Of a stretch of DNA of 32,406 nucleotides, positions 10,996 to 29,767 are shown in pieces. The notes below the pieces were generated by a model. It had not been told where the DNA came from, did no database searches, and saw only the letters and a program-made list of their open reading frames with translations. The position numbers and the translations under genes are program-made. The first letter of the stretch is position 1. Every line of letters starts with the position of its first letter. Origin of the DNA: Azospirillum sp. B506 (GTDB lineage Bacteria; Pseudomonadota; Alphaproteobacteria; Azospirillales; Azospirillaceae); assembly GCF_000333595.1 (NCBI RefSeq), contig NZ_BADK01000609.1, positions 1 to 32,406 of the forward strand, in the 5' to 3' direction.

Positions 10996-11658
10996 TCACG
11001 CCTCCGCGTCGGGCTGGAGGTCGGGAAAGGCGGCGGCGAAGGCCGGCAGGGCGCAACAGGCCTCGTCGATGCGCCGCAGGGTGGGATAGGCCTCCAGCGG
11101 GCAGCCGAACCGGCGGGCGTTCAGCATCTGCGGCACCAGCAGGATGTCGGCCAGGCCCGGCTCGTCGCCATGGCAGAAGCGGCCGGTGCGCGGATCGCCG
11201 GCCAGCCGCGCCTCCAGCGCGGTCAGCCCGACGGCGATCCAATGCCGGTACCAGCCATCGACCTCCTCCTGGCCGTGGCCCATCGTCTTCAGATGGTTCA
11301 GCACCCGCAGATTGTTCAACGGATGGACGTCGCAGGCCACCGCCAGCGCCAGCGCCCGCACCCGCGCCCGGCCCAGCGCATCGGCCGGCAGCAGCGCCGG
11401 GGTGGGATGCGTCTCGTCGAGATATTCGATGATGGCGACCGACTGGGTCAGCACATGGTGCCCGTCCGGCCCATCTTCCGGCCCGTCGACCTCCAGCGCC
11501 GGCACCAGATGTTCCGGGTTGAGGTCGGAATAGGGCGGCCTGGCCTGTTCGCCCTTGCGCAGATGAACGAAGGCCTGATCCGGCGCCAGCCCCTTCAGGT
11601 TCAGGGCGATGCGCACGCGGTAGGCGGCGGAGGAGCGGAAGTAGGTGTGGAGTTTCAA
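10996..11658 (-). CDS. maiA: Maleylacetoacetate isomerase (zeta-class glutathione transferase)
   Basis: 220 residues if translated from the TTG at 11658. The N-terminus (M)KLHTYFRSSAAYRVRIALNLKGL is where the family normally begins, and SSAAYRVRIAL is the zeta-class active-site motif. LTQSVAIIEYLDET is the glutathione-contacting loop, and DVHPLNNLRVLNHL and GDEPGLADILLVPQ are typical of the C-terminal domain. The enzyme converts maleylacetoacetate to fumarylacetoacetate, between HmgA and Fah. An alternative GTG at 11712 overlaps the livF stop (GTGA) and would add 18 unconserved residues. Being the last gene of the liv operon, it links that transporter to homogentisate catabolism. Confidence 0.9.
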   Translation of the reverse strand: MKLHTYFRSSAAYRVRIALNLKGLAPDQAFVHLRKGEQARPPYSDLNPEHLVPALEVDGPEDGPDGHHVLTQSVAIIEYLDETHPTPALLPADALGRARVRALALAVACDVHPLNNLRVLNHLKTMGHGQEEVDGWYRHWIAVGLTALEARLAGDPRTGRFCHGDEPGLADILLVPQMLNARRFGCPLEAYPTLRRIDEACCALPAFAAAFPDLQPDAEA

Positions 11659-11708
11659 GGGATTGGATCCATTTTTGCGGTGCGGCGGCAATCTGGAATC
11701 GAACGCTA

Positions 11709-12413
11709 TCACAGCCCCAGATAAGCCTGCCGCACCCGTTCGTTGCTGAGAAGCGCGGCGCCGCTGTCGCTCAGCACGATCTCGCCGGTCTCGATCACAT
11801 AGCCGCGGTCGGCGATGGCGAGGGCCGCATGGGCGTTCTGCTCGACCAGCAGGATGGTGGTGCCCTCGCGCTTCAGCCGCTGCACCGCATCGAAGATCTC
11901 GGTCACCAGCAGCGGCGCCAGCCCCATGCTTGGCTCGTCGAGCAGAAGCAGGCGCGGCTTCGCCATCAGCGCGCGGCCCAGCGCCACGATCTGCTGCTGG
12001 CCGCCCGACAGGGTGCCGGCGGGCTGATCGCGTTTGACCTTCAGCACCGGAAACATCTCGTACAGGCGGTCGATGTCGTCGTCCGGCTTGCCGCTGCCGC
12101 GGCGGTAGGCGCCGAGGCGGAGGTTGTCCTCGACCGTCTGCGGGCCGAACAGCTGCCGCCCCTCCGGCACCTGCACCACCCCTTCGGCGACGCGGCGCGA
12201 CGCCTTCATCCTTGTGATGTCGCAGCCGTCGAAGGTGATGCGCCCGCTGCTGGCGGGGTGGACGCCGGACAGGGTGCGCAGCAGCGTCGTCTTGCCGGCG
12301 CCGTTGGCGCCGACCAGCGCCACCAGCTCGCCCTCGCGCACGGTCAGGCTGGCCGATTTCAGCGCGTGGATGCGGCCGTAATGGCTGTTGAGTCCCTCGA
12401 TCTCCAGAAGCAT
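11709..12413 (-). CDS. livF: Branched-chain-type ABC transporter ATP-binding protein LivF
   Basis: 234 residues. It has a Walker A GANGAGKTT, ABC signature LSGGQQQ, Walker B LLLLDEPSMGL and an H-loop-region sequence TILLVEQNAHAAL. The overall length and the motif MFPVLKVKRDQPAGTLSGGQQQIVALGRALM are characteristic of LivF. It would form the ATPase heterodimer with LivG and drive transport through LivHM. There are 12 bases between livG and livF. The operon ends in maiA, so the cargo is more likely an aromatic acid or aromatic amino acid than leucine. Confidence 0.93.
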   Translation of the reverse strand: MLLEIEGLNSHYGRIHALKSASLTVREGELVALVGANGAGKTTLLRTLSGVHPASSGRITFDGCDITRMKASRRVAEGVVQVPEGRQLFGPQTVEDNLRLGAYRRGSGKPDDDIDRLYEMFPVLKVKRDQPAGTLSGGQQQIVALGRALMAKPRLLLLDEPSMGLAPLLVTEIFDAVQRLKREGTTILLVEQNAHAALAIADRGYVIETGEIVLSDSGAALLSNERVRQAYLGL

Positions 12414-12425
12414 GGGAGGCCCTCC

Positions 12426-14194: not shown

Positions 14195-14207
14195 CGGCTA
14201 TAAGTCC

Positions 14208-15083: not shown

Positions 15084-15115
15084 CGTTGGGTTCCTGATGT
15101 TCCTCTCCCGCGCAC

Positions 15116-15320: not shown

Positions 15321-15335
15321 TCCGGGCCGCGCTCG

Positions 15336-16514
15336 TCACTTCACCAGTGCCCAGTCGCCTTGGCGAACCTCCACCATGTGGAAGGCGTCCAGCGTCAGGC
15401 CCATATGGTCCTTGGCGCTCATGGTCACGGTGCCGCCGGTGCCGACATAGCCCTTGGTCTGCTCGATGGCGTCGCGCAGCTTGGCCTTGTCGGTGCCGCC
15501 GGCCCGCTTCACTGCGTCCAGCGCGATCATCAGCCCGTCATAGGCGTGGCCGGCGAAGGTCGACACCTCGGTGTTGAAGCTGTCCTCATAGACCTTGGTG
15601 AAGTCGGTCACGACCTTCTTCTGCGGGTCGCTGTCGGCCAGTTGCGCCGCGACGACCAGACCGGCGGCCGGCAGGCGGACGCCCTCGGCGGCTCCGCCGG
15701 CCAGCCGGATATATTCCTTCGACGCCACGCCATGCGACTGGTAGAGCGGCAGCGCGATGCCGAGCTGGCGGTAATTCTTGGTCACCACCGCCGGGCCCTG
15801 GCCCAGGCCGAACACCAGCACCGCCTGGGCGGAAGCGTTGTTCTTGATCTTGGTCAGCTGGGCGGTGACGTCGGTGTCCTTGGCGCCGTAGGTCTCGTCG
15901 GCGACCAGCTCGATCCCGCGCTCCTTGGCGACGGCGACGGTCTGCTCGCGGCCGGACTTGCCGAAGCCGCTATCCTCGGACAGCAGCGCCAGCTTGGTCA
16001 GCCCGCGCTTCCTCATGTCCTCCATCACTTTTTCCGCGGCCATGCGGTCGGTGTGCGGGGTCTTGAACACCCACTTCTTCACCGGTTCGACGATCACCAC
16101 GGCACCGGCCAGCGAGATGAAGGGCACGCCCGCCCGCTCCACCAGCGGCACCGCCGCCATGGTCGCCGCGGTCGTGGTGCCGCCGACGATCACGTCGACG
16201 CCGTCGCTCTCGATCAGGCGCTTGGTGAAGGACGCCGCCTTGTCAGCGGCGCCGCCATCGTCATAGACCGTCAGTTGCAGCGGACGGCCATCGACCCCGC
16301 CCGCCTTGTTGATGCGGTCGGCATACAGCTCCAGCACCTTCTTCTCCGGATCGCCGAGGAAGGAGGCCGGGCCGGTGGCCGAGACGATGGCGCCGACCTT
16401 GATCGGGTCCGCCGCCTGGGCGGCCGCGGACATCAGGCCGGGCACCGCCGTCACCGCGGCTACGGCGGTGAAAGCGGCGGTGAAAGCGAAGGTGGCGAGC
16501 AGGCGTTTGCGCAT
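15336..16514 (-). CDS. livK: Periplasmic substrate-binding protein of the Liv-type ABC transporter
   Basis: 392 residues from the ATG at 16514, preceded by a GGAGG ribosome site; the frame extends to 16724 but that extension is not conserved-looking. It has a signal peptide (MRKRLLATFAFTAAFTAVAA...AAAQA-ADPIKVG). The mature protein is a type-I periplasmic-binding fold: IKVGAIVSATGPASFLGDPEKKVLEL, LQLTVYDDGG, DVIVGGTTTAATMAAVPLVERAGVPFISLAG, FAGHAYDGLMIALDAVKRAGG. Aromatic-acid-binding members belong to the same family, and the presence of maiA and the hmg cluster around it suggests an aromatic ligand; this is inference. The promoter carries a MarR-type box. Confidence 0.9.
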   Translation of the reverse strand: MRKRLLATFAFTAAFTAVAAVTAVPGLMSAAAQAADPIKVGAIVSATGPASFLGDPEKKVLELYADRINKAGGVDGRPLQLTVYDDGGAADKAASFTKRLIESDGVDVIVGGTTTAATMAAVPLVERAGVPFISLAGAVVIVEPVKKWVFKTPHTDRMAAEKVMEDMRKRGLTKLALLSEDSGFGKSGREQTVAVAKERGIELVADETYGAKDTDVTAQLTKIKNNASAQAVLVFGLGQGPAVVTKNYRQLGIALPLYQSHGVASKEYIRLAGGAAEGVRLPAAGLVVAAQLADSDPQKKVVTDFTKVYEDSFNTEVSTFAGHAYDGLMIALDAVKRAGGTDKAKLRDAIEQTKGYVGTGGTVTMSAKDHMGLTLDAFHMVEVRQGDWALVK

Positions 16515-16599
16515 GATGTCCTCCCAACTGCTGCCCCGCTTGTCGCCGGACCGGGCGGTGGCCCGTCCCCGGCGCTGCGGGATGATTTGTCTCGCATAA

Positions 16600-16615
16600 T
16601 GTTGCAAACGAAATT
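16600..16615. promoter_or_regulatory. MarR-type operator candidate upstream of livK
   Basis: TGTTGCAAACGAAATT matches the hmgA/marR box (reverse complement AGTTTCAAACGAAACT) at 13 of 16 positions, including the run CAAACGAAA. It lies 86-101 bases upstream of the livK ATG. Confidence 0.6.
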
Positions 16616-16732
16616 GTTTCGGAAGAAAAATTTCCTTGCGCTCAACCACAATCGAAGTGCGGATGTTGCCGCCCGCCCCCCTTTCCCTTTGCGATCTCTC
16701 CGGCCAAGCCCGGGGGCTCGTCATTTCGCTTT

Positions 16733-16948: not shown

Positions 16949-17893
16949 ATGGCCCGCCCGCGCCGCCCCGAAGACCTTGCCGCCCAGTTGACCGAGGCGA
17001 TCGCGCCGCGGGCGAAGTCGCTGATCATCACCCTCTATGGCGACGCGGTACTGCCGCATGGCGGATCGCTGTGGCTGGGCAGCCTGATCGAGCTGATGGG
17101 TCAGTTCGGGATGAGCGAGCGGATCGTCCGCACCTCGGTCTTCCGGCTGTGCAAGGACGACTGGCTGACCAACACCCAGATCGGCCGGCGCAGCTTCTAC
17201 CGGGTCACCGACAGCGGGAAGGAACGTTTCGCCGCGGCGGAGCGACGGATCTATGCACCGCTGGCCCGCGAATGGGACCGCGGCTGGGACCTGCTGATGG
17301 TGCCGCCCAACGCACTGGATGCCGAGACGCGCGACGCCCTGCGGCGGGAGCTGATCTGGCAGGGATTCGGCGCCGCGTCGGCCACCGTCTACGCCCATCC
17401 CAACTGCGACGAGGCGGCGATGCACCGCTCGTTGGCCGAACTGGGGGTGGCGGACAAGATCGTCCACATGAAGGCCAGCCTGGACCGGGCCGAAGGGTTC
17501 GGGGCATTGCGCGATCTGGTGCGCGGCTGCTGGGACATCGATCAGCTTGAACACGACTATGCGGCCTTTCTGGATCACTTCCGTCCGGTCTGGGCGGCGG
17601 TCGATGCCGCCGATGCGCCCGACCCGGCCGCCTGCTTCGTCCTGCGCACACTGATGATCCATGATTTCCGCCGCATCCTGCTGCGCGACCCGATGCTGCC
17701 GCCCGATCTGCTGCCGGCGGACTGGCCGGGCCAGGAAGCGCGGATGCTGACGCGGAATCTCTACCGCCGCCTCGCCGGCCCGTCGGACTCCTTTCTGATG
17801 CAGGCGGCGACCACCGCCAATGGCCCCCTGCCCGACGCCCAGCCCTCCTTCCACGGCCGCTTCGGCGGTCTGGAGAGCGTCCCGGCCGGCTGA
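16949..17893 (+). CDS. paaX: PaaX-family transcriptional repressor
   Basis: 314 residues. The N-terminal winged helix (residues about 15-90: AKSLIITLYGDAVLPHGGSLWLGSLIELMGQFGMSERIVRTSVFRL) is the PaaX DNA-binding domain. The central region (WDLLMVPPN...FGAASATVYAHPN) and the C-terminus (FVLRTLMIHDFRRILLRDPMLPPDLLPADWPGQEA) are distinctive of PaaX. In E. coli this repressor controls the phenylacetate (paa) operon and is released by phenylacetyl-CoA. Here it is followed by a diiron oxygenase and a reductase, not by paaA-K. The effector is therefore uncertain: phenylacetyl-CoA or a related arylacetyl compound. An AAGGA site lies 12 bases before the ATG. Confidence 0.92.
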   Translation: MARPRRPEDLAAQLTEAIAPRAKSLIITLYGDAVLPHGGSLWLGSLIELMGQFGMSERIVRTSVFRLCKDDWLTNTQIGRRSFYRVTDSGKERFAAAERRIYAPLAREWDRGWDLLMVPPNALDAETRDALRRELIWQGFGAASATVYAHPNCDEAAMHRSLAELGVADKIVHMKASLDRAEGFGALRDLVRGCWDIDQLEHDYAAFLDHFRPVWAAVDAADAPDPAACFVLRTLMIHDFRRILLRDPMLPPDLLPADWPGQEARMLTRNLYRRLAGPSDSFLMQAATTANGPLPDAQPSFHGRFGGLESVPAG

Positions 17894-17945
17894 CGTCCGG
17901 GCTTTCGATACGCAGCGCCAGGAAAAACTCCGCTTTGCGAACGAA

Positions 17946-17959
17946 TTGATCTGGATCAA
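17946..17959. promoter_or_regulatory. Perfect FNR-type box upstream of the diiron oxygenase gene
   Basis: TTGATCTGGATCAA is an exact match to TTGAT-N4-ATCAA, and the palindrome extends four further bases on each side (17942-17963). It lies in the paaX-diiron gap, 171 bases before the ATG. Binding by an FNR/FixK/AadR-type regulator would make expression respond to oxygen limitation. Confidence 0.75.
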
Positions 17960-18024
17960 TTCGGCGTATTCTTGCGTATTTCTTTTTGAATCAATCGATT
18001 AGAGGCGACCCTCACGCGGATTAA

Positions 18025-18065
18025 ATGATACAGATATCGTTGATAGTGAGCATATTCTGTGTCAT
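18025..18065. promoter_or_regulatory. Paired inverted half-sites (candidate PaaX operator) upstream of the diiron oxygenase gene
   Basis: ATGATACA (18025-18032) and TGTGTCAT (18058-18065) are separated by 25 bases, exactly the spacing of the pair at 16733-16773. Flanking bases are also similar (right side CATATAAA here, CATATTAA there). The site lies 66-106 bases before the ATG and downstream of the FNR-type box, a position suited to repression. Confidence 0.68.
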
Positions 18066-18130
18066 ATAAAAACCATAGGGCGCCGATGGAAATGTGAGCG
18101 CCCGCGGAATGCTCCCGGAGGAAACGCCCC

Positions 18131-19159
18131 ATGTCCAAGGACTACACCCCCATCGCCAATACGATGGAGCTGCCCCCCGCCACGCCGCAGCCGAACGTCT
18201 ATCCGCTGTCCTGGGTGTCGCAGACCAAGAAGCTGGAAGAGGTCTACACCGCCGCCCAGCGCGAGAACTGGGACCCGGCCAAGCTGCCCTGGGACAGCTT
18301 CGACGTGTCGCGCTACAGCTGGGAGGAGCGGGAGGCCATCGCCTATTGGTGGACCATCCTGTCGGTGTTCGACGCCTCCGCCCCGCCGGTCTTCGCCCAT
18401 GCGCTGATCAAGACCTACGAGGTGCATGAGGAGGACCCGGTCCGCCGCTGCTTCTTCTCCGTCACCCGCGACGAGCAGAACCACGAGCAGATGTGCGGCC
18501 TCGCCATCACCAGACTGCTGGAGGCCACCAGCCCGCTGACCTACGAGCCGAGGACCGATCTCGGCCGCCGGCTGCGGAAGAACGCCCACTGGCTCTACTA
18601 CAATGGCGGGCGCTATTGGGACGGCTACAAGAAGGCGGTTCCGAAATACTCGCTGGCCGTTCTGTTCAGTTCCTTCCTGATGGGCGAGATCGCGGCGGCG
18701 ACCATCTTCCACCAGATGGCGGCCGGCTGCAGCGAGCCGGTGTTCAAGGAGGCCTTCCGCAACATCGGCCGCGACGAGGGCCGCCACATGGCGATCTGCA
18801 TGTCGGTGATGGAGCGCGACTATCCTCATCTGGCGGTGGAGGACCGGTCGATCATCACCAAGCAGATCCGGGCCGGCTACCTGTTCCTGTCCGCCGTGCT
18901 GTTCGAGCCGCCGCCCCAGTTCTGGGACCTGCCCGACGACTTCATCGCCACCCAGCGCGAGGCCGAGGCCATCGCCCGCAACGCCGGTTTCCACATCCCG
19001 GATTACGAGACGAAGAAGGAGAACTGGCGCAACGCCATGCTGAACCTGAAGGGTGTGCTGGACCGCTACGGCATCCCCTTCCCGGCGATCCCGGAGGTCG
19101 GCATCACCGGCGAGGAAGTCCGGGACGTCGACATGGACGAGATCATTCCGGTGTTCTGA
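18131..19159 (+). CDS. Ferritin-like diiron oxygenase, candidate aromatic-acid hydroxylase
   Basis: 342 residues, soluble, helix-rich. Two ExxH motifs mark a carboxylate-bridged diiron site: E115-x-x-H118 (RDEQNHE) and E216-x-x-H219 (RDEGRHM). Candidate remaining ligands are D81 (helix WWTILSVFDAS) and E186 (FLMGEIAAA), whose spacings (34 and 30 residues) fit the ribonucleotide reductase R2 / bacterial monooxygenase superfamily. It is not PaaA, and I could not place it in a named family. The following gene encodes a matching 2Fe-2S/FAD electron-transfer protein, so a two-component monooxygenase is likely. Its position next to paaX and within a homogentisate cluster points to hydroxylation of phenylacetate or a similar acid. 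GGAGGAAA lies 6 bases before the ATG. Confidence 0.8.
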   Translation: MSKDYTPIANTMELPPATPQPNVYPLSWVSQTKKLEEVYTAAQRENWDPAKLPWDSFDVSRYSWEEREAIAYWWTILSVFDASAPPVFAHALIKTYEVHEEDPVRRCFFSVTRDEQNHEQMCGLAITRLLEATSPLTYEPRTDLGRRLRKNAHWLYYNGGRYWDGYKKAVPKYSLAVLFSSFLMGEIAAATIFHQMAAGCSEPVFKEAFRNIGRDEGRHMAICMSVMERDYPHLAVEDRSIITKQIRAGYLFLSAVLFEPPPQFWDLPDDFIATQREAEAIARNAGFHIPDYETKKENWRNAMLNLKGVLDRYGIPFPAIPEVGITGEEVRDVDMDEIIPVF

Positions 19160-19186
19160 ACAACTCCGTCCGACCTTTCCTGTCTC

Positions 19187-19221
19187 CCCCTCCCTCCCCC
19201 TCTTCGTGGGGCAGGGAGGGG
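19187..19221 (+). terminator. C-rich/G-rich hairpin between diiron oxygenase and reductase genes
   Basis: CCCCTCCCT-CCCC (19187-19199) pairs with GGGG-C-AGGGAGGGG (19208-19221) around a CTCTTCGT loop with one bulge. It lacks a T-tract, so it is more likely an mRNA-stabilising or read-through-modulating element in the 106-base intercistronic gap than a full terminator. Confidence 0.5.
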
Positions 19222-19265
19222 ACATTGCGTCCCCACGTCTCCAATCCCGCCCAAGGATCCCCCCG

Positions 19266-20333
19266 GTGAGCCGCATCCGCCTCCACCCCTCGGGCCGCAC
19301 GGTCGAGTGCCGTGACGGCGAGACCGTCCTGTCGGCGCTGGAACAGGCCGGCTACGCCCTGCCCAACAACTGCCGCGCCGGCGCCTGCGGCGAATGCAAG
19401 GTCAAGGTCCTCAGCGGCCAGTTCGACCAGGGCATGGTGCTGGACATGGCGCTGTCCCAGCCCGAGCGGAAGGACGGCTATGGCCTGATGTGCATGGCCA
19501 AGCCGATCTCCGACGAGCTGGTCATCGAATACGGCACCGCCGACGCCCAGCCCAAGCTGTTCCCGCCGCGCGAGAATGTGCTGTTCATCGTCACCGACCG
19601 CATCCCGCGCACGCCCCGCATCGTGGAACTGCGTCTGCGCCCGCTGGGACAGCCGCTGCGCTACTGGCCGGGCCAGTATGTGATGCTGGGCGATGCCGCC
19701 GCCGGTGCGCCGCCGCGCTGCTATTCCATCGCCAACGCTCCCCGTCCGGACGGCGAGATCGCGCTGCAGGTGACCCGCGTCGACGGCGGCCCGACCAGCA
19801 GTTGGATCCACGACCGGCTCGCGGTCGGCGACATGGTGAAGCTGTCCGGCCCCTACGGTACCTTCATCGGCGACCCGTCGGTCGACAGCCCGGTGCTTTG
19901 CATGGCGGCCGGCTCCGGCCTCGCTCCCATTGTGGCGCTGACCGACGCGGCGCTGCGCCGCGGCTACCGGCCGCCGGTGACGCTGCTGGTCTCCGCCCGC
20001 ACGACGGCCGATGTCTATCAGCAGGGTCTGCTGAGCTACTGGCAGGCCAAATACCGCAATTTCAAGGTCAAGGTGACCCTGACGCGGGAAGAATCTCCCA
20101 ACCACTTGAAGGGCCGCATCCCGGCGATCCTGCCCGGCCTGTTCCCCGACCTCTCCGGCCATTCCGTCTTCACCGCCGGCAGCCCCGGTTTTGTCGAGGC
20201 CTGCGTCGCCGCCGCCCGCGCGCTGGGCGCGCAGGACGAGCGGATCCACAGCGAAGGTTACGTCTCCCAGCACATCCCGGAAACGGTGCCGGCCGACCGT
20301 CTCATGGCGATGACTGTGGGGGCCGCAGGGTAA
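19266..20333 (+). CDS. 2Fe-2S/FAD/NAD(P)H oxidoreductase, electron-transfer component of the diiron oxygenase
   Basis: 355 residues from the GTG at 19266, with an AAGGA site 8 bases upstream (19253-19257). Longer upstream frames overlap the diiron gene in another frame. Residues 1-90 are a plant-type ferredoxin domain with C36-x4-C41-x2-C44 and C76 (NNCRAGACGECK...GLMCMAKP). Residues about 100-200 bind FAD (R151-C-Y-S-I motif and GPYGTF), and residues about 205-340 bind NAD(P)H (MAAGSGLAPIVAL...FTAGSPGFVEA). The order ferredoxin-FAD-NAD is that of DmpP, MmoC and BenC, and differs from PaaE, whose ferredoxin is C-terminal. It would pass electrons from NAD(P)H to the diiron protein encoded just upstream. 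Confidence 0.92.
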   Translation: MSRIRLHPSGRTVECRDGETVLSALEQAGYALPNNCRAGACGECKVKVLSGQFDQGMVLDMALSQPERKDGYGLMCMAKPISDELVIEYGTADAQPKLFPPRENVLFIVTDRIPRTPRIVELRLRPLGQPLRYWPGQYVMLGDAAAGAPPRCYSIANAPRPDGEIALQVTRVDGGPTSSWIHDRLAVGDMVKLSGPYGTFIGDPSVDSPVLCMAAGSGLAPIVALTDAALRRGYRPPVTLLVSARTTADVYQQGLLSYWQAKYRNFKVKVTLTREESPNHLKGRIPAILPGLFPDLSGHSVFTAGSPGFVEACVAAARALGAQDERIHSEGYVSQHIPETVPADRLMAMTVGAAG

Positions 20334-22643: not shown

Positions 22644-23660
22644 TCATGCGCCCTCGTAGCGCACCACCTGCTGGTCGATGGCGCCGAACACGCTGGCGCC
22701 GGCCGCGTCGAACAGCTCGATCCGCACGCGGTCGCCGAAGCGCAGGAAGGGGGTCTTCGGCGCGCCATGCTCGATGGTCTCGATCATCCTCAACTCGGCA
22801 AGGCAGGAATAGCCGACGCCGCCGGCCGCGACCGGCTTGCCGGGACCGCCGTCCAGCTTGTTCGACACCGTGCCCGAGCCGACGATGCTGCCGGCCGCCA
22901 GATGGCGGGTCCTGGCGGCATGCGCGATCAGCGTTGGAAAGTCGAAGGTCATGTCGACCCCGGCATCCGGGCAGCCGAAGGCTTCGCCGTTCAGCGTCGT
23001 CACCAGCGGACGGTGCAGCTTGCCGCCGTCCCAGGCGCCGCCCAGCTCGTCCGGCGTCACCGCGACGGGGGAGAAGCTGGAGGCCGGCTTGGACTGGAAG
23101 AAGCCGAAGCCCTTGCCCAGTTCCGCCGGGATCAGGTTGCGCAAGCTGACGTCGTTGACCAGCATCAGCAGCCGGATCTGCCCGCGCGCCGCTTCGGCCG
23201 AAACGCCCATCGGCACGTCGCCGGTGACGACGGCGATCTCCGCCTCGAAATCGATGCCCCAGGCTTCGGTCGCCGCCGGGATCGGGTCGGTGGGGGCGAG
23301 GAAGCCGTCGGAACAGCCCTGATACATCAACGGGTCGGTCCAGAAGCTGGGCGGCATCTCGGCACCGCGCGCCTTGCGGACCAGCTCCACATGATTGACG
23401 TAGGCAGACCCGTCCGCCCACTGGTAAGCGCGCGGCAGCGGCGATGCCGCCGCGGCCGGATCGAAGGGTTGGCCAGCCGCCGGATCGGCGTTCAGCGCGC
23501 GGTAGACCTCCTCCAGCTTCGGCGCCAGCGCCGTCCAGTCGTCCAGCGCCGCCTGCAGGGTGCGGGCGATCTCCGGCACCGGGGTGGCGCGGGTCAGGTC
23601 GCGCGACACCACCACCAGACTGCCGTCGCGCCCGCCCGCCTTCAAACTTGCCAGCTTCAT
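22644..23660 (-). CDS. fahA: Fumarylacetoacetate hydrolase family protein
   Basis: 338 residues of the two-domain FAH family. The N-terminal half has a helical region (ALDDWTALAPKLEEVYRALN) and PLPRAYQWADGSAYVNHVELVRKARG. The C-terminal catalytic domain has the metal-binding Glu/Asp pattern (WGIDFEAEIAVVTGD) and MLVNDVSLRNLIPAELGKGFGFFQSKPASSFSP, TRHLAAGSIVGSGTVSN. The expected reaction is fumarylacetoacetate to fumarate and acetoacetate, the last step of homogentisate breakdown. It is the second gene of an operon with hmgA (49-base gap), which supports this over other FAH-family hydrolases. Confidence 0.88.
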   Translation of the reverse strand: MKLASLKAGGRDGSLVVVSRDLTRATPVPEIARTLQAALDDWTALAPKLEEVYRALNADPAAGQPFDPAAAASPLPRAYQWADGSAYVNHVELVRKARGAEMPPSFWTDPLMYQGCSDGFLAPTDPIPAATEAWGIDFEAEIAVVTGDVPMGVSAEAARGQIRLLMLVNDVSLRNLIPAELGKGFGFFQSKPASSFSPVAVTPDELGGAWDGGKLHRPLVTTLNGEAFGCPDAGVDMTFDFPTLIAHAARTRHLAAGSIVGSGTVSNKLDGGPGKPVAAGGVGYSCLAELRMIETIEHGAPKTPFLRFGDRVRIELFDAAGASVFGAIDQQVVRYEGA

Positions 23661-23709: not shown

Positions 23710-24834
23710 TCATTTCGCCTTCCAGCTGTCGGCGTAGCCGCCCCACTCGACACCCTCCATCGCCGGATAGACGTCGAGCGGGTCGCGGGTGTCGATCATC
23801 ACCGCGACCTCATCGGTCTCCTTGCGCTCGAACCTCTGCGCCACCTCGTAGGCTTTCGGGTGCGGTCCGTGCGGGAAGCCCGAGGGATGGTAGGTGACCA
23901 TGCCGGGATGGATGTTGTCCCGCGAGAAGAACTGGCCGCGGTGATAGAACAGCACCTCGTCGAAATCCTCGTTGGAATGATAGTAGGGCAGCTTCAACGC
24001 CTCCGGGTCCGACTCGATGGGCCGCGGCACGAAGGTGCAGACGATGAAACGTCCGGCGATCCAGGTGCTGTGCGCCGACGGCGGCAGATGGTAGCGGTGG
24101 CTCATCAGCGGCCGGATGTCGCGCCAGTTCAGCCGCACCGGGGCGAGGTCGCCATGCCAGCCCACGGCATCCAGCGGGTTGAACGGATAGGTCATGGCGC
24201 AGAGCTGCCCGCGCTTCTTCACCCGGACCAGCGTCTCACGCTCGTGCTTCTGCGCCTGGAAGGCGTCGTCCAGCGCCGGCACGTCCAGCACCGCCGGATC
24301 GAAGATGGCGTGAGTGCCGACCAGCCCCTTGTGCGGCAGCTTGTAGGCGTCGCCGGTGGCCTCGACCATCAGCACCATCGCCGCCTCGTCGGTTTCCAGC
24401 CGCCAACAGGTGTTGCGCGGCAGCACGACATAGTCGCCCTCCCGCACCTCCAGATGGCCGTAGTCGCAGAACAGATGGCCGCCGCCCTGATGGAAGAACA
24501 GCAGGTCGTCGCCGTCGGCGTTGCGGACGAGATGATCCATCCTGCCCTTGAACCGCCACAGCCGGACCTGGGTCGCCCCATTGCCCATCAGGGCCGGCGC
24601 CTCCAGGGGGCAACCGGGCATGTGATCGAGATGGTTCAGGTCGAAGGCGCGCGGGCGCAGCGGCCCGTCGAAGCTGGTCCAGCCGGTCGGCGGATGGGCA
24701 TGGTGCATCTGGGTCGCCGGGCCGAAGAAGCCCTCGCGCCCCATCTCGCGCTCGTAAGTCCCGGCCGGGAGCCGGACATGGGCCTGGCGCGACGCGGTGC
24801 CCTCGATTTTCGGAAACGAAATCCAGTTCTTCAT
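23710..24834 (-). CDS. hmgA: Homogentisate 1,2-dioxygenase
   Basis: 374 residues, shorter than the usual 430-440, so it belongs to a compact subfamily. The C-terminal cupin carries the likely Fe ligands H286 and E293 (YYHSNEDFDEVLFYHRG) and H322 (SGFPHGPHP). The N-terminal part has the family features ATQMHHAHPPTGWTSFDGP and LLFFHQGGGHLFCDYGHLEVREGDYVVLPRNT. The enzyme opens the ring of homogentisate to maleylacetoacetate. A GGGGAAG ribosome site precedes the ATG. It is divergent from marR, and the shared gap contains the best copy of the MarR-type operator. The downstream gene is fahA; the isomerase maiA is 12 kb away in the liv operon. Confidence 0.9.
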   Translation of the reverse strand: MKNWISFPKIEGTASRQAHVRLPAGTYEREMGREGFFGPATQMHHAHPPTGWTSFDGPLRPRAFDLNHLDHMPGCPLEAPALMGNGATQVRLWRFKGRMDHLVRNADGDDLLFFHQGGGHLFCDYGHLEVREGDYVVLPRNTCWRLETDEAAMVLMVEATGDAYKLPHKGLVGTHAIFDPAVLDVPALDDAFQAQKHERETLVRVKKRGQLCAMTYPFNPLDAVGWHGDLAPVRLNWRDIRPLMSHRYHLPPSAHSTWIAGRFIVCTFVPRPIESDPEALKLPYYHSNEDFDEVLFYHRGQFFSRDNIHPGMVTYHPSGFPHGPHPKAYEVAQRFERKETDEVAVMIDTRDPLDVYPAMEGVEWGGYADSWKAK

Positions 24835-24905
24835 GGCGCTTCCCCTGCATGCCGCCGGCCATTCCGCAGCGGGCGCCGGCAGGCTTGTTCAGTCGCCGCC
24901 ATTTT

Positions 24906-24921
24906 AGTTTCGTTTGAAACT
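24906..24921. promoter_or_regulatory. MarR-type operator in the hmgA/marR divergent promoter
   Basis: AGTTTCGTTTGAAACT has perfect inverted arms AGTTTC and GAAACT around a 4-base centre. It is midway in the 155-base hmgA-marR gap. Related boxes with 13/16 identity occur before livK and the FAD monooxygenase gene. The natural reading is autoregulation of marR plus control of hmgA-fahA. Confidence 0.7.
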
Positions 24922-24989
24922 GTTGCAAGGACCAAATTCCAGCGCAGGATGGGGGCATCGCAGTTCCCCACACAGACGATGCCCCGCCG

Positions 24990-25535
24990 ATGCCGCCCGC
25001 CCGCCGTTCCCGAAAAGCCTCAGCCACGTCCACCTCCAGCCCGGCGGAGCTGCCGGCGCTGCACCTGACGCGCTTCCTGCCCTACCGGCTGTCGGTCCTG
25101 GCCAATACGGTCAGCCACACGCTGGCCAAGCTGTATGAGAAGCGGTTCGGCATCACGATCCCGGAATGGCGGATCATCGCCATCCTCGGCAGCGGCGAGA
25201 CGATGAGCGCCGGCGAGATTGCGCAGCGCACGGCGATGGACAAGGTGCAGGTCAGCCGCGCCATCAGCCGCATGCTCGAGTCCGCGCTGATCCTGCGCGA
25301 ATCGGGCGACACCGACCGGCGCAAGGCGCTGCTGACCCTGACGCCCAAGGCGCTGGCGATCTATGCGGAGATCGTGCCGATGGCCCTGACCTATCAAGAG
25401 GAGGTCACCGACGCCCTGTCGATCGACGAACGCGGGCAACTCGACACCCTGCTGTCCAAGCTGCAGGCCCGCGCCGACCAGCTGGTCACCCGCCCGGCGC
25501 CAGTTGCCGTGCAGACGGAGCAGGCGGAAGGGTAG
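24990..25535 (+). CDS. MarR-family regulator of the homogentisate cluster
   Basis: 181 residues. The winged-helix core at residues about 45-135 (FGITIPEWRIIAILGSGETMSAGEIAQRTAMDKVQVSRAISRMLESALILRESGDTDRRKALLTLTPKA) includes the conserved recognition helix and the DxRR wing (DTDRRK). N- and C-terminal helices form the dimer interface. The first 25 residues are Arg/Ser-rich and may be disordered. It is divergent from hmgA-fahA across a 16-bp operator-like palindrome. MarR proteins of this kind usually repress until an aromatic ligand binds; homogentisate or its precursor is a reasonable guess. Confidence 0.9.
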   Translation: MPPARRSRKASATSTSSPAELPALHLTRFLPYRLSVLANTVSHTLAKLYEKRFGITIPEWRIIAILGSGETMSAGEIAQRTAMDKVQVSRAISRMLESALILRESGDTDRRKALLTLTPKALAIYAEIVPMALTYQEEVTDALSIDERGQLDTLLSKLQARADQLVTRPAPVAVQTEQAEG

Positions 25536-25541
25536 GACCGT

Positions 25542-26180
25542 TCAGCCCCCCTTCACCTTGTGCAGCGGCTGGCCGGTGCCGGCATCGACCCTGCCGCGGC
25601 CGGGTTCCTCCGCCTCCAAGGGCGAACAGGCAACCATGGTGGCGAGCGACCGGCGGGCGAGCCGCTGGTATTCGTCCGTTCCCTCCGACTTCCAGGCGAT
25701 CTCGTCGGGGTGCAGGTCGCGCACGACTTTCCCCGGCAGGCCGGCGACCAGCGTGCGCGGCGGCACGACGAAACCGGCCTTGACGAAGGCCATCGCCGCG
25801 ACCACCGACTCCTCGCCGATCTCCGCCCCATCCATCACCACCACATTCATGCCCACCAGCGCGTTGCGGCGGACGATGCAGCCGTGCAGCACCGCGCCAT
25901 GGCCGACATGCCCATCCTCCTCGACGATGGCGTCATGGCCGGGGAAGGCATGGAGCGTGCAATTGTCCTGCACGTTGCTGCCCCTGTGCAGGACGATCCG
26001 GCCGAAATCGCCGCGCAGGCTGGCGCAGGGCCCGACATAGCAGTCCGGCCCGACCACCACATCGCCGATCAGCACGGCGGAGGGGTGGACGAAGGCGGTG
26101 GGATCGATCACCGGGATCACGCTGTCGATGGCGTAGACGGTGGGGCGCGGCAGGGCGGGAGCGACTGTGGAAGCGGTCAT
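25542..26180 (-). CDS. paaY: PaaY-like hexapeptide-repeat (gamma-carbonic-anhydrase-fold) thioesterase
   Basis: 212 residues. Residues about 15-165 form a left-handed beta-helix with the PaaY pattern: FVHPSAVLIGDVVVGPDCYVGPCASLRGDFGRI, VQDNCTLHAFPG, EDGHVGHGAVLHGCIVRRNALVGMNVVVMDGAEIGEES. The His residues expected for metal binding are present. The C-terminus (GTDEYQRLARRSLATMVACSPLEAEEPGRGR) resembles that of E. coli PaaY, which distinguishes it from generic gamma-carbonic anhydrases. PaaY is a thioesterase that removes dead-end CoA thioesters in phenylacetate breakdown. It converges with marR (6 bases) and is divergent from the FAD monooxygenase gene. Confidence 0.87.
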   Translation of the reverse strand: MTASTVAPALPRPTVYAIDSVIPVIDPTAFVHPSAVLIGDVVVGPDCYVGPCASLRGDFGRIVLHRGSNVQDNCTLHAFPGHDAIVEEDGHVGHGAVLHGCIVRRNALVGMNVVVMDGAEIGEESVVAAMAFVKAGFVVPPRTLVAGLPGKVVRDLHPDEIAWKSEGTDEYQRLARRSLATMVACSPLEAEEPGRGRVDAGTGQPLHKVKGG

Positions 26181-26323: not shown

Positions 26324-26337
26324 TTGATTGGTATCAA
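26324..26337. promoter_or_regulatory. Perfect FNR-type box upstream of the FAD monooxygenase gene
   Basis: TTGATTGGTATCAA is an exact TTGAT-N4-ATCAA match, centred 97.5 bases before the ATG. A -41.5 placement would put the transcription start near 26372, leaving a normal leader of about 56 bases, so class-II activation is geometrically possible. Confidence 0.72.
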
Positions 26338-26345
26338 ATGAAACT
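26330..26345. promoter_or_regulatory. MarR-type operator overlapping the FNR-type box
   Basis: GGTATCAAATGAAACT matches the reverse complement of the hmgA/marR box at 13 of 16 positions, sharing the CAAAYGAAA run. It overlaps the right half of the FNR-type box by 8 bases, so the two regulators could not easily bind together. Confidence 0.58.
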
Positions 26346-26427
26346 GTATCGTTGGCAACAATAACAATCCGGCCAACGCGCCCGATCCGGTTTTGCCGGT
26401 CCTGGTTTCCTGGGGAGGAAACGCCCA

Positions 26428-28083
26428 ATGCACGCGACCTTCAGCTATCCGAAATACAGCTTCATACCCTCCGACGAACAGCGCACCGGCACCATCCGGC
26501 GCCATCCGGTGGTGGTCATCGGCGCCGGCCCGGTCGGGCTGACCGCGGCACTCGACTTCGCCCGCAAGGGTGTGCCGGTGGTGGTGCTGGATGCCGAGGA
26601 CACCGTCAGCGTCGGCAGCCGCGCCGTCTGCTATGCCAAGCGCGCGTTGGAGGTGTGGGACCGGCTGGGCGTCGGCCGGCGCATGATCGACAAGGGTGTC
26701 GTCTGGAAGATCGGCAAGGTCTTCAACGGCGACCGCATGGTCTACCAGTTCGACCTGCTGCCGGAGCCGGACCACAAGATCCCCGCCTTCATCAACCTCC
26801 AGCAATATCACCTGGAGGATTTCCTGGTCACGGAAGCCCTGAAGAGCGACCTGATCGACCTGCGCTGGCTTTCGCGCGTCGTCTCCGCCCGGCAGGAGGC
26901 CGACCATGTCGTGCTTCAGGTGGAAACGCCGGACGGCGTCCATGCGGTCGAGGCCGATTGGGTCATCGCCTGCGACGGCGCCAAGTCGTCGGTGCGCAAG
27001 ATGCTGGGGCTGGAGTTCCAGGGCGAGGTGTTCAAGGACCGCTTCCTGATCGCCGATGTGGTGATGAAGGCCGATTTCCCGGCGGAGCGCTGGTTCTGGT
27101 TCGACCCGCCCTTCCACCGCAAACAGTCGGCCCTGCTGCACATGCAGCCCGACAATGTCTGGCGCCTGGATTTCCAACTGGGATGGGACGCCGACCCGGA
27201 GGAGGAGAAGAGGCCGGAGCGCGTCATCCCGCGCGTCCAGGCGATGCTGGGCGCCGACACGCCGTTCGAGCTGGAATGGGTGTCGGTCTACACCTTCCAA
27301 TGCCGGCGGCTGGAGCGGTTCCGCCATGGCCGCATCCTGTTCGCCGGCGATTCGGCGCATCAGGTCTCGCCCTTCGGCGCCCGCGGCGCCAACAGCGGCG
27401 TGCCCGACGCCGACAATCTGGTGTGGAAGCTGGCCCTGGTGCTGGACGGCAAGGCGCCGGAGTGGCTGCTCGACAGCTACAGCGACGAACGGGTGGCGGC
27501 GGCCAGGGAAAACATCCTGAACTCCACCCGCTCCACCGACTTCATCACGCCGAAGAGCGAGATGAGCCGCATCTTCCGCGACGCCGTGCTGGAACTGGCG
27601 GTCGACCATCCCTTCGCCCGCGCGCTGGTCAATTCCGGCCGGCTGTCCACCCCCACCACCTACACCGACAGCCCGCTGAACACGCCGGACGGCGACGCCT
27701 TCGCCGGCCGGATGGTGCCGGGCGCTCCGGCCACCGACGCGCCGGTGGAGCGCGACGGCCAACCCGGCTGGCTGATGGAGGCGCTGGACGGCCGCTTCAC
27801 CGTGCTCTACGCCGCCGGTGACGGGGCGGTTCCGGCGGAGGTGGCGGAAGCGTTGGACGCTCTCGCCGCCGGACCGCTGCCGTTGGTCTGGTACGCCGTG
27901 ACCGGGCGCCGCCGTGGCATCGCCGGAGAGCTGGTGGATTGCGCCGGGCGCCTGCGCGAGCGCTACGACCTGACGCCCGGCAGCGTCTATCTGATCCGCC
28001 CCGACCAGCACGTCGCCGCGCGCTGGCGCCGCTTCGACGACGCCGCCCTGTCCGCCGCGCTGAACCGTGCTGTCGGCCGCTGA
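26428..28083 (+). CDS. FAD-dependent aromatic hydroxylase, MhaA-like (3-hydroxyphenylacetate 6-hydroxylase candidate)
   Basis: 551 residues, class-A flavoprotein monooxygenase. The FAD fold starts at VVVIGAGPVGLTAALDFARKG (G32-A-G-P-V-G). The DG motif is CDGAKSSVRK, and the GD motif is RILFAGDSAHQVSPFGARGANSG. A thioredoxin-like C-terminal domain (residues about 430-551) is typical of the MhpA/PheA group. The next gene encodes a 65-residue DUF2783 protein. In Pseudomonas putida U, MhaA plus the small coupling protein MhaB hydroxylates 3-hydroxyphenylacetate to homogentisate, and the same pairing beside hmgA-fahA makes this the best guess. Other 3-hydroxyaryl acids are possible. The ribosome site is identical to that of the diiron gene over 13 bases. 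Confidence 0.85.
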   Translation: MHATFSYPKYSFIPSDEQRTGTIRRHPVVVIGAGPVGLTAALDFARKGVPVVVLDAEDTVSVGSRAVCYAKRALEVWDRLGVGRRMIDKGVVWKIGKVFNGDRMVYQFDLLPEPDHKIPAFINLQQYHLEDFLVTEALKSDLIDLRWLSRVVSARQEADHVVLQVETPDGVHAVEADWVIACDGAKSSVRKMLGLEFQGEVFKDRFLIADVVMKADFPAERWFWFDPPFHRKQSALLHMQPDNVWRLDFQLGWDADPEEEKRPERVIPRVQAMLGADTPFELEWVSVYTFQCRRLERFRHGRILFAGDSAHQVSPFGARGANSGVPDADNLVWKLALVLDGKAPEWLLDSYSDERVAAARENILNSTRSTDFITPKSEMSRIFRDAVLELAVDHPFARALVNSGRLSTPTTYTDSPLNTPDGDAFAGRMVPGAPATDAPVERDGQPGWLMEALDGRFTVLYAAGDGAVPAEVAEALDALAAGPLPLVWYAVTGRRRGIAGELVDCAGRLRERYDLTPGSVYLIRPDQHVAARWRRFDDAALSAALNRAVGR

Positions 28084-28105
28084 CCCCCCTGTATCGGAGC
28101 CTCCC

Positions 28106-28303
28106 ATGGCCAAACTGATGACCGAGCAGCGCTTCGCCAGCCCGGACGATGTCTACCAGCTGCTGATCGACGGCCACCGCGAGCTGACGCCCGACCAGAG
28201 CACCCGCCTGAACGCCAAGCTGATCCTGCTGCTCGCCAACCACATCGGCGATGCCGAGGTGCTGGCGGAGGCGCTGCGGGTCGCGCGGCAGGGGGTGGAC
28301 TAG
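28106..28303 (+). CDS. DUF2783 small protein, putative MhaB-like coupling protein
   Basis: 65 residues from the ATG at 28106, with GGAG 7 bases upstream; the frame opens 13 codons earlier but that part overlaps the end of the hydroxylase gene. The sequence (QRFASPDDVYQLLIDGHRELTPDQSTRLNAKLILLLANHIGD) is a helical DUF2783 domain. The 22-base gap after the flavoprotein gene indicates one operon. By analogy with MhaB, a coupling protein of about 8 kDa needed to link NADH use to hydroxylation, it probably assists the upstream enzyme; this is inference from size and position. Confidence 0.82.
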   Translation: MAKLMTEQRFASPDDVYQLLIDGHRELTPDQSTRLNAKLILLLANHIGDAEVLAEALRVARQGVD

Positions 28304-28393: not shown

Positions 28394-29767
28394 ATGACAC
28401 TGCACCGCCTGTTCGCCTTGCTGTTCATGCTGCTGTGCTGCGGCCCCGCCTTGGCGGAAGGGCTGACGCAGGCGGCGCTGTCGATCCCCGCCCACTTCCC
28501 CGACGGCAGCACCGCCACGCTGGAGGCGATGCTGCTGCGGCCGGACGGCCCCGGGCCATACCCCGTCGCCATCCTCAGCCACGGCACGCCGCGCGACGCG
28601 GCGGAACGGGCACAGATGACGCCGCTGCGCTATCTGCCGGAAGCGCGGGAATTCGCGCGGCGCGGCTGGGCGGTGGTGGCGGTGATGCGGCGCGGCTATG
28701 GCGGATCGGACGGCCCCTACAGCGAGACGACCGGGTCCTGCAACAACCCGGACTATCTGCGCTCCGCCCGCCAGAGCGCCGAGGATCTGCGTCAGGCCAT
28801 CCGCTATGTCTCGGGCCAGCCCTTCGCCGACGCCAGCCGCATCCTGGCGGTGGGCGTATCGGCCGGCGGGCTTGCCAGCATCGCGCTCAGCGCCGATCCG
28901 CCACCGGGGCTGAAGGCGGTCATCAGCTTCGCCGGCGGCCGCGGCTCGGTCGCCGACAACCAGGTCTGCCAGGAGGATCGGCTGATCGGCGCCTTCGGCA
29001 CGATGGGCCGCACGTCGCGCGTTCCCTCCCTGTGGATCTATGCCGAGAACGACCTGTTCTTCGGCCCCGACCTCGCCCGGCGGCTGTGGCAGGCCTTCAC
29101 CCAGGCGGGTGGACGGGCGGAGTTCATCGCCGCCCCGCCCGACGGCAAGGACGGGCATTTCTTCTTCAGTGCCGCCATTGCGCAATGGACGCCGATGGTC
29201 GACGGCTTCCTGGCGAAGAACGGGCTGGTGCTGCGCGACATGCCGATCGCCGTGTCGCTGCCGCAGCTGCCGCCGCCGGCCGAATTGTCCGCCGCCAACC
29301 GCGCCAAGTTTCCCGCCTATGTCGCGGCCGGAGGCAACAAGGCCTTCGCCGTTTCCCCCGATGGCGCCTATAGCTGGAAGTCCGGCCTGCGCAGCCTGGA
29401 CGAGGCGCAGAGGACGGCGCTCGAAAGCTGCGCCACGCACACGCAGAAGGGCTGCCGCATCGCCTATCTCAACGACCGCCCGGCTGGCGGCGCCAGCGAT
29501 CAGACCGCAGCGGCGGCCCCTCCGCGCAACACGCGCGTCAGGCTGGAACCGCCGCCGGAACTGTCGGCCGCCGGACGCGAAAAGTTCGACGCCTATGTCT
29601 CGGCGACCGGACGCAAGGCCTTCGCCGTGTCGCAGGACGGCGCCTTCGGCTGGAAATCGGGCGTGCCCAGCGAGGATGCCGCCCGCCGCGGCGCGCTCGA
29701 CAACTGCGCCAAATACACCCGCCACACCTGCTATGTCGTGATCGTCGACGACCGGCCGCTGCGTTGA
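28394..29767 (+). CDS. Exported alpha/beta hydrolase with two C-terminal tandem repeats
   Basis: 457 residues with a signal peptide (LFALLFMLLCCGPALA-EG). Residues about 25-285 form a dienelactone-hydrolase/acylaminoacyl-peptidase-like alpha/beta hydrolase: oxyanion region ILSHGTPRD, nucleophile S156 in GVSAGG, acid D220 (AENDLF) and H255 (DGHFF). Two copies of a 70-residue module follow (residues 292-363 and 386-455). Each has the pattern PPPxELSAAxRxKFxAYVxAxGxKAFAVSxDGAxxWKSG...LxxCxxxTxxxCxxxxxxDRP, with a conserved Cys pair that could form a disulfide. The modules may bind a surface ligand or the substrate. It is not obviously part of the aromatic cluster. Confidence 0.8.
   Translation: MTLHRLFALLFMLLCCGPALAEGLTQAALSIPAHFPDGSTATLEAMLLRPDGPGPYPVAILSHGTPRDAAERAQMTPLRYLPEAREFARRGWAVVAVMRRGYGGSDGPYSETTGSCNNPDYLRSARQSAEDLRQAIRYVSGQPFADASRILAVGVSAGGLASIALSADPPPGLKAVISFAGGRGSVADNQVCQEDRLIGAFGTMGRTSRVPSLWIYAENDLFFGPDLARRLWQAFTQAGGRAEFIAAPPDGKDGHFFFSAAIAQWTPMVDGFLAKNGLVLRDMPIAVSLPQLPPPAELSAANRAKFPAYVAAGGNKAFAVSPDGAYSWKSGLRSLDEAQRTALESCATHTQKGCRIAYLNDRPAGGASDQTAAAAPPRNTRVRLEPPPELSAAGREKFDAYVSATGRKAFAVSQDGAFGWKSGVPSEDAARRGALDNCAKYTRHTCYVVIVDDRPLR
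29267..29764 (+). repeat. Tandem 70-residue modules in the exported hydrolase
   Basis: The two modules share KAFAVSxDGAxxWKSG, the ELSAAxRxKFxAYV helix and two Cys at equal spacing, while the DNA has diverged. This indicates an old internal duplication. They are joined by a linker of about 20 residues (GGASDQTAAAAPPRN). Confidence 0.75.

What the first reader, a model, noticed from the sequence alone, without database searches (positions are those of the whole stretch)
26428..28303. Flavoprotein hydroxylase plus DUF2783 protein as an MhaAB-type coupled enzyme
A 551-residue class-A flavin monooxygenase followed after 22 bases by a 65-residue DUF2783 protein reproduces the layout described for P. 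putida U MhaA and MhaB. This gives DUF2783, an unknown domain, a testable role as a coupling protein.
Basis: partly seen in the sequence, partly recalled or inferred. Interest (0 to 1): 0.58.

Follow-up and report, generated by a model that had tools for sequence, protein, structure and literature searches.

The report
Hydroxylase with near-obligate DUF2783 partner
Next to a homogentisate-breakdown gene set sits a flavin hydroxylase with a tiny helper protein (DUF2783); related hydroxylases almost always carry such a helper, and the helper is a distant relative of a known "coupling protein", which gives an unknown protein domain a job that can be tested.

Summary
In detail: a 551-aa class A flavin hydroxylase (26428-28083) and, 22 bases on, a 65-aa DUF2783 protein (28106-28303). 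MhaB, the P. putida coupling protein, appears to be a remote DUF2783 member: Pfam's model misses the five Pseudomonas proteins tested, but it passes its cut-off in MhaB-type proteins beside MhaA-clade hydroxylases of Thiothrix and Comamonas, and profile-profile comparison agrees. The pairing is near-obligate: of 398 genomes sampled, the same 59 carry the hydroxylase subfamily and DUF2783; of its 76 gene copies found there, 72 have the small gene directly downstream and 2 are fused to it. All 13 MhaA-bearing Pseudomonas genomes (of 298) and all 80 named MhaA loci have it too. The window pair lies in a clade sister to true MhaAB (39% identity to MhaA), beside a divergent homogentisate-dioxygenase-like gene, a fumarylacetoacetase gene and a MarR regulator, with an operator-like site conserved in the genus. 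Best reading: a two-subunit hydroxylase that feeds a homogentisate-type pathway and needs DUF2783 as a stoichiometric partner, probably for coupling. Coupling, binding, substrate and docking site are inferred, not shown. New member of a known kind; the family-wide link to DUF2783 is what is new here.

The parts
26428..28083 (+). Class A flavin-dependent aromatic hydroxylase, 551 aa, subfamily NF006002/PRK08132 (MhaA-like)
   Evidence: class A fold in models of relatives
28106..28303 (+). DUF2783 (PF10932) protein, 65 aa, MhaB-like partner subunit
   Evidence: remote homology to MhaB
28084..28105 (+). 22-base gap with likely ribosome site (ggag)
   Evidence: read directly
26332..26350 (+). Operator-like site TATCAAATGAAACTGTATC upstream of the hydroxylase
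   Evidence: exact; 0.15 matches with up to 3 mismatches expected in the window, 4 found; pattern made from the window; conserved in 23 of 25 genus loci with a close FMO
24904..24926 (+). Related site (AGTTTC-GTTT-GAAACT) between the HmgA-like gene and marR
   Evidence: 3 mismatches
24990..25535 (+). MarR-family regulator, candidate regulator of both sites
   Evidence: synteny
23710..24834 (-). Short homogentisate-1,2-dioxygenase-like protein, 374 aa
   Evidence: (TIGR01015 78.5 bits, far below cut-off 510.75)
22644..23660 (-). Fumarylacetoacetase (FAA hydrolase)
25542..26180 (-). PaaY-like hexapeptide protein
   Evidence: 290.9 bits, under cut-off 319.6
10996..11712 (-). Maleylacetoacetate isomerase (maiA)
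   Evidence: 265.9 bits, cut-off 171.05

Best explanation
The two genes encode one two-subunit hydroxylase. The FMO binds FAD, takes electrons from NAD(P)H and hydroxylates a phenolic aryl-acid, most likely 3-hydroxyphenylacetate or a close analogue, to homogentisate or a homogentisate-like hydroquinone for the neighbouring dioxygenase and fumarylacetoacetase. The DUF2783 protein, three helices in models of two relatives, binds the FMO in fixed ratio and, like MhaB, makes oxygen activation productive, so that reduced flavin hydroxylates substrate instead of leaking H2O2. Shown here: both genes, homology of DUF2783 to MhaB-type proteins, near-obligate linkage, native fusions, genomic context and a shared operator-like site. 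Inferred: binding, coupling, substrate, site of docking.
For: The same 59 of 398 genomes carry both families over their cut-offs, and the same 28 of 45 in the genus (sets compared). Of 76 FMO copies over cut-off, 72 have the small gene directly downstream and 2 are fused to it. Four FMOs below the cut-off had no match directly downstream (L169-L172). The iterated profile hit 292 adjacent ORFs and 4 others among 36,570 ORFs, duplicates included; the 4 are explained in the full report. MhaB link: Pfam's own model passes its cut-off in 4 MhaB-type proteins; hhalign of all clade II MhaB vs canonical DUF2783 95.4%, E 1.7e-8. Native fusions in two separate subclades, L064 and L087. PMC3053370 passages call MhaB a coupling protein of a 3-HPA 6-hydroxylase. 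Context: clade I FMOs lie within 7 kb of canonical HmgA in 16 of 64 loci, of the short HmgA-like gene in 22 of 64, of fumarylacetoacetase in 31 of 64. Operator-like site.
Against: No biochemistry on any clade I pair was found. The window pair is not orthologous to MhaAB. The original MhaAB paper is not held, so the coupling claim rests on a later paper's description. One clade I FMO in the genus (L167) has no partner nearby and one FMO (G287) has it 1.5 kb away on the other strand. Part of the homogentisate linkage comes from one genus, and clade II FMOs are rarely near HmgA (1 of 64).
Confidence: 0.56

Rival explanations
1. DUF2783 is an assembly factor: it helps the FMO fold, load FAD or stay soluble and is not needed during turnover.
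For: Small helical protein (models of relatives), co-encoded one to one; linkage alone cannot tell subunit from chaperone.
Against: Native fusions in two lineages suggest a permanent 1:1 part. MhaB is described as a coupling protein.
Confidence: 0.2
2. Two-subunit enzyme as in the best explanation, but with another substrate (for example 4-hydroxyphenylacetate or another hydroxylated aryl acid) and a product other than homogentisate.
For: Sister clade to MhaA, 39% identity. The neighbouring dioxygenase is divergent (25% identity to a canonical HmgA over 314 columns), while a canonical HmgA (cut by a contig end) and a 4-HPPD lie elsewhere in the genome.
Against: Outside the genus, clade I FMOs recur beside canonical HmgA, including FMO, DUF2783, HmgA, Fah, MaiA orders in L191 and L193, which favours homogentisate.
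Confidence: 0.3
3. MhaB/DUF2783 is a flavin reductase partner, as in HpaBC-type two-component monooxygenases.
For: A review table lists MhaB in the same column as the HpaC components (PMC10816480, passage seen).
Against: About 60 aa, three predicted helices in relatives, no flavin or NAD(P)H domain match for the window protein; the FMO has its own FAD domain and class A fold.
Confidence: 0.02
4. Operon neighbour without physical interaction.
For: Linked genes share phylogeny, so the mirror-tree correlation (0.89) is not proof.
Against: Adjacency holds across many genomes, in all three groups of FMOs compared, in second copies within a genome, and as fusions.
Confidence: 0.05

Closest known systems
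MhaAB, 3-hydroxyphenylacetate 6-hydroxylase of Pseudomonas putida U
   Same: Large FMO followed by a ~60-aa protein of the DUF2783 superfamily (as judged on Pseudomonas relatives); link to homogentisate.
   Different: Window FMO 39% identical to a 566-aa Pseudomonas MhaA, sister clade; partner is a canonical DUF2783 (91.9 bits), whereas the five Pseudomonas MhaB tested fall under Pfam's cut-off.
BxeA2727/BxeA2726 of Paraburkholderia xenovorans LB400
   Same: FMO, DUF2783-like protein, then hmgA.
   Different: Groups with the MhaA side of the tree; the genome taken as LB400 has a second, clade I pair with canonical DUF2783 on another replicon (L338) that is nearer to the window's.
bll2330-bll2329-bsl2328 of Bradyrhizobium diazoefficiens
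   Same: FAD-dependent oxidoreductase followed by a DUF2783 protein in a listed operon (PMC6710368, passage).
   Different: Preceded by a VOC protein and listed among genes lower in an nnrR mutant; no enzyme function given in the passage.
MobA 3-hydroxybenzoate hydroxylase / phenol hydroxylase type class A FMOs
   Same: Fold over the whole FMO in the model of L264: 2dkh Z 37.9, rmsd 2.8, 496 aligned.
   Different: Recalled as working without a small partner.

Membership tests
NF006002/PRK08132 FMO subfamily | NCBIfam model over curated cut-off | tested here: met
   870.6 bits, cut-off 416
DUF2783 (PF10932) | Pfam gathering score over the full profile | tested here: met
   91.9 bits, cut-off 25, positions 1-59 of 59
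MhaAB (3-HPA 6-hydroxylase) | FMO followed directly by a ~60-aa partner | tested here: met
MhaAB (3-HPA 6-hydroxylase) | Small partner homologous to MhaB | tested here: met
   Remote, tested on Pseudomonas relatives, not on the strain U protein: 23-32% identity to four Pseudomonas MhaB; hhalign 95.4% for all clade II MhaB, 72% for Pseudomonas-type MhaB alone, 0.4% for the reversed control
MhaAB (3-HPA 6-hydroxylase) | FMO in the same clade as MhaA (orthology) | tested here: not met
   Sister clade (77 leaves with the window, 101 with Pseudomonas MhaA and LB400 A2727); 39% identity
MhaAB (3-HPA 6-hydroxylase) | Hydroxylates 3-HPA to homogentisate; coupling needs the small protein | not testable with these tools
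   Needs enzyme assays; context only
Class A flavoprotein monooxygenase | Own FAD-binding domain and PHBH-type fold | tested here: met
   PF01494 224.3 bits; model of natural-fusion relative L064 vs PnpA 6ain Z 41.6, rmsd 3.0, 383 aligned
Two-component (reductase plus oxygenase) monooxygenase such as HpaBC | Partner is a flavin reductase | tested here: not met
   65 aa; the only Pfam match of the window protein at E up to 0.001 is DUF2783; the partner part is three helices in two models of relatives. No enzyme assay

The most novel reading that the evidence does not exclude
A whole subfamily of class A flavin hydroxylases, present in about one in seven genomes sampled from the phylum, is obligately two-subunit: DUF2783/MhaB is a dedicated effector that gates flavin reduction or shields the oxygenated flavin, a mode of control not established for class A enzymes.
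Probability: 0.42. Interest if true: 0.66.

Novelty: new member of a known kind. Interest (0 to 1): 0.5.

Why it matters
DUF2783 has no assigned function, and in the paper library searched its name occurs in one paper, in a table. Showing that MhaB-type proteins belong to the same superfamily and that DUF2783 is a near-obligate partner of one FMO subfamily turns it into a concrete hypothesis with ready test systems: the window pair, the native fusions and the Pseudomonas pairs. It also questions a review table's grouping of MhaAB with reductase-oxygenase systems, and offers a route to ask how a ~60-residue helical protein can control uncoupling in class A hydroxylases, a practical problem in biocatalysis.

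Tried and rejected
Interface: two AlphaFold models were made, but no coordinates or PAE were available, so the docking site could not be read; pTM (0.88 and 0.85) says little about a part that is about a tenth of the chain or less. Structural look-ups matched the FMO part only; the DUF2783 part was barely tested and no absence of a known fold is claimed. Sequence matches of the small protein to solved structures were designed helical proteins and other weak matches at E 0.012 or worse, taken as chance. Mirror-tree correlation (r 0.89 overall, 0.81-0.84 within groups, shuffles at most 0.45) was not used as evidence of binding, because linked genes share phylogeny. Residue co-evolution was not attempted: too few independent pairs. 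Inverted repeats alone gave only a partial answer on the operator; the pattern search and the genus comparison did better. In-frame TGA flags in copies of the genus of G322 were looked at only roughly: three frames (L339-L341) end normally near the FMO C-terminus. A search for 4-hydroxyphenylacetate 1-hydroxylase, a possible alternative activity, found no paper; one for Azospirillum with homogentisate and phenylacetate gave five papers, none opened.

Results against the reading, told once more: Pfam does not recognise the five Pseudomonas MhaB tested (best 17.1 bits, cut-off 25) nor LB400 A2726; only 22 of 88 MhaB-type proteins match PF10932 at E up to 10. The six clade II proteins sent were picked as high scorers of my own profile, so 4 of 6 over cut-off is not a rate. 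Three partner calls (L158, L159, L160) were weak at first (7.1, 2.9, 10.3 bits) and counted only after profile iteration. One search scored only three candidates per genome, so extra FMO copies may be missing. In plasmids, 53 records hold an FMO match at E up to 1e-60 and 38 a DUF2783 match at E up to 0.01; the difference was not examined. In the genus of G322, 130 of 144 genomes have the FMO, but partners were checked there in only five loci. Two genus loci (L181, L195) lack the operator-like site, besides two of the 25 with a close FMO.

Full report
What is there. The window holds a 551-aa flavoprotein gene (26428-28083, +) and, 22 bases downstream, a 65-aa gene (28106-28303, +). The first is a class A flavin monooxygenase of NCBIfam subfamily NF006002/PRK08132 (870.6 bits, cut-off 416) with PF01494. 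The second is DUF2783, PF10932, 91.9 bits over the full profile.

The two gene types travel together. In 398 genomes drawn by the tool from the window's phylum (taken as Pseudomonadota, because G082 has the contig length of Comamonas testosteroni NFYY023), PF10932 is over its cut-off in 59 and NF006002 is over its cut-off in 59; the two lists are the same genomes (Fisher p 5e-72, which ignores relatedness). In the window's genus both are found in the same 28 of 45 genomes. Counting by FMO rather than by DUF2783, which avoids picking loci because they have the partner, one search lists 76 gene copies over the cut-off (my count from its table; the two pieces in G207 counted once). In 72 the small gene lies directly downstream on the same strand, in 2 it is fused to the FMO (L087 in G059, L064 in G207), in 1 the contig ends inside the FMO (L168), and in 1 the small gene lies about 1.5 kb away on the other strand (G287; L090/L173). 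A third fused copy, cut by its contig and below the cut-off, is L088 in a genome of the same genus as L087. Over everything fetched, part of it found through DUF2783, there are 190 distinct FMOs: 185 with a separate adjacent partner, 2 fused, 1 cut by a contig end, 1 with the displaced partner and 1 without (L167, a second copy in a genome whose other copy has one). Four FMOs below the subfamily cut-off had no match directly downstream (L169-L172). As a control, the iterated DUF2783 profile was run on all 36,570 ORFs of 40 aa or more in the loci, duplicates of a place included: 292 hits were adjacent to an FMO and 4 were not. Of the 4, two are the displaced G287 gene seen in two loci, one is the fusion fragment L088, and one is a hit in the same frame as the adjacent L079 partner.

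MhaB is a remote DUF2783. PMC3053370 (passages) gives MhaA as 566 aa and MhaB as a 60-aa coupling protein. In a search of 298 genomes of the genus of G190, 13 have an NF006002 FMO at E up to 1e-130. That genus is Pseudomonas by inference: the FMO scores and partner sequences of L215 and L219 are the same as those of named Pseudomonas loci L231 and L232. Four of the 13 FMOs are exactly 566 aa from a likely ATG, and all 13 are followed by a small gene of about 60 aa. All 80 named loci, the best 80 of 570 candidates, have one too. Pfam does not call the Pseudomonas proteins: none of five reaches the cut-off, the best 17.1 bits. But Pfam's own model passes its cut-off of 25 in the equivalent proteins of Thiothrix eikelboomii (L282, 34.1), an uncultured Thiothrix (L306, 29.9) and Comamonas testosteroni (L295, 28.8; L305, 25.2), whose FMOs are 62% identical to the Pseudomonas query L218. 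In all, 22 of 88 such proteins match PF10932 at E up to 10. Profile-profile comparison in the Python box gave 72% and E 3.4e-5 for Pseudomonas-type MhaB vs canonical DUF2783, 95.4% and 1.7e-8 for all clade II MhaB, over 99% for intermediates against either side, and 0.4% for the reversed control. These are E-values of single comparisons. I did not have the P. putida U sequence itself.

Where the window pair belongs. A FastTree tree of 175 FMO frames from the loci plus the window, two LB400 proteins and four outgroup FMOs puts the window in a 77-leaf clade (support 0.82), with the Pseudomonas MhaA proteins and LB400 A2727 in the other, 101-leaf clade (0.94). Identity to a 566-aa Pseudomonas MhaA is 39%. 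The same genome has a second pair with a canonical DUF2783 (102.5 bits) on another replicon (L338), on the window's side of the tree. So the window pair works like MhaAB by anatomy but is not its orthologue. The fusions L064 and L087 lie in different subclades, which suggests two fusion events.

Context and regulation. Directly upstream lie paaY (-), marR (+), a short HmgA-like gene (-) and a fumarylacetoacetase gene (-). The short HmgA-like gene is found near the FMO in 21 of the 27 other genus loci fetched. Its protein is divergent (TIGR01015 78.5 bits, cut-off 510.75; 25% identity to a canonical relative over 314 columns). In that alignment a histidine, a glutamate and a histidine fall at what I recall as the iron-ligand positions. 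The same genome has a canonical HmgA cut by a contig end and a 4-HPPD elsewhere. Among loci of at least 11 kb, clade I FMOs lie within 7 kb of canonical HmgA in 16 of 64, of the short form in 22 of 64 and of fumarylacetoacetase in 31 of 64; clade II in 1, 0 and 2 of 64 (the clades there are split by which query scores higher, and many clade I loci are from one genus). A site TATCAAATGAAACTGTATC lies at 26332-26350, with a related site between the HmgA-like gene and marR at 24908-24926; 4 matches with up to 3 mismatches in the window against 0.15 expected (the pattern was made from the window). The site scores at least 14 of 17 upstream of the FMO in 23 of the 25 other genus loci whose FMO is close to the window's, and in 0 of 15 further loci, two of which (L181, L195) are the remaining genus loci; pieces inside the coding region never exceed 12. 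This supports one regulon, with MarR as the likely regulator (inferred).

How it probably works. Models of a natural fusion (L064, 720 aa) and of an MhaAB-type pair read through its stop (L264, 644 aa) show the partner as three helices at pLDDT of mostly 86-96 joined by a low-confidence linker. The FMO part matches class A enzymes: 2dkh, 3-hydroxybenzoate hydroxylase, Z 37.9, rmsd 2.8, 496 aligned; PnpA 6ain, Z 41.6, rmsd 3.0, 383 aligned. The partner thus shows no sign of a flavin or nicotinamide site and is unlikely to be a reductase, against its column in a review table (PMC10816480, passage). The simplest reading is a stoichiometric subunit that makes the FMO's oxygen chemistry productive, as stated for MhaB. 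An assembly factor is the main rival.

Literature seen. PMC3053370 (passages and two references), PMC6710368, PMC10816480, PMC10983741 and PMC12117332 (passages). The original MhaAB paper (J Biol Chem 2005, 280, 26435) is not held; nothing of it was seen beyond its citation. DUF2783 occurs in one paper of the library searched, in a table row of the passage seen. No paper that links DUF2783 with MhaB was therefore found; this covers only the open library, and the listings showed none either.

Noticed in passing
16949-20333 (+), with 10996-16724 (-): A PaaX regulator (312 bits), a 342-aa ferritin-like protein weakly like AurF (21.6 bits, cut-off 29.6) and a 2Fe-2S/FAD/NAD reductase, beside a branched-chain-type ABC transporter and maiA on the other strand. 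The diiron-like gene lies in 18 of 27 genus loci fetched (loci are cut at about 9 kb each side). It could be an unrecognised hydroxylase that makes the phenolic substrate of the window FMO, for example from phenylacetate.
   Followed up: partly
23710-24834 (-): A short, divergent homogentisate-dioxygenase paralogue beside a fumarylacetoacetase, while a canonical HmgA and 4-HPPD sit elsewhere in the genome: its substrate may not be homogentisate.
   Followed up: partly
L090 and L173 (G287): An NF006002 FMO whose DUF2783-like gene lies about 1.5 kb away on the opposite strand, next to a frame that looks by eye like an ABC-transporter permease.
   Followed up: partly
L167 (G426): A clade I FMO with no DUF2783-like gene nearby, in a genome whose second FMO copy has one: a natural test of whether a partner can serve two enzymes.
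   Followed up: partly
L337 and L338 (G872, taken as LB400): Two FMO-DUF2783 pairs in one genome; the published MhaAB is the divergent one, and the canonical-DUF2783 pair is not mentioned in the passages read.
   Followed up: partly
28394-29767 (+): An alpha/beta-hydrolase-type protein with a DUF4189 match, 90 bases after the DUF2783 gene; a relative lies just after the pair in 15 of 27 genus loci.
   Followed up: no
PF10932 model (Pfam), tested on A5 and single proteins: Pfam's model misses many MhaB-type proteins (22 of 88 match at E up to 10); a wider model or a clan would join them.
   Followed up: yes
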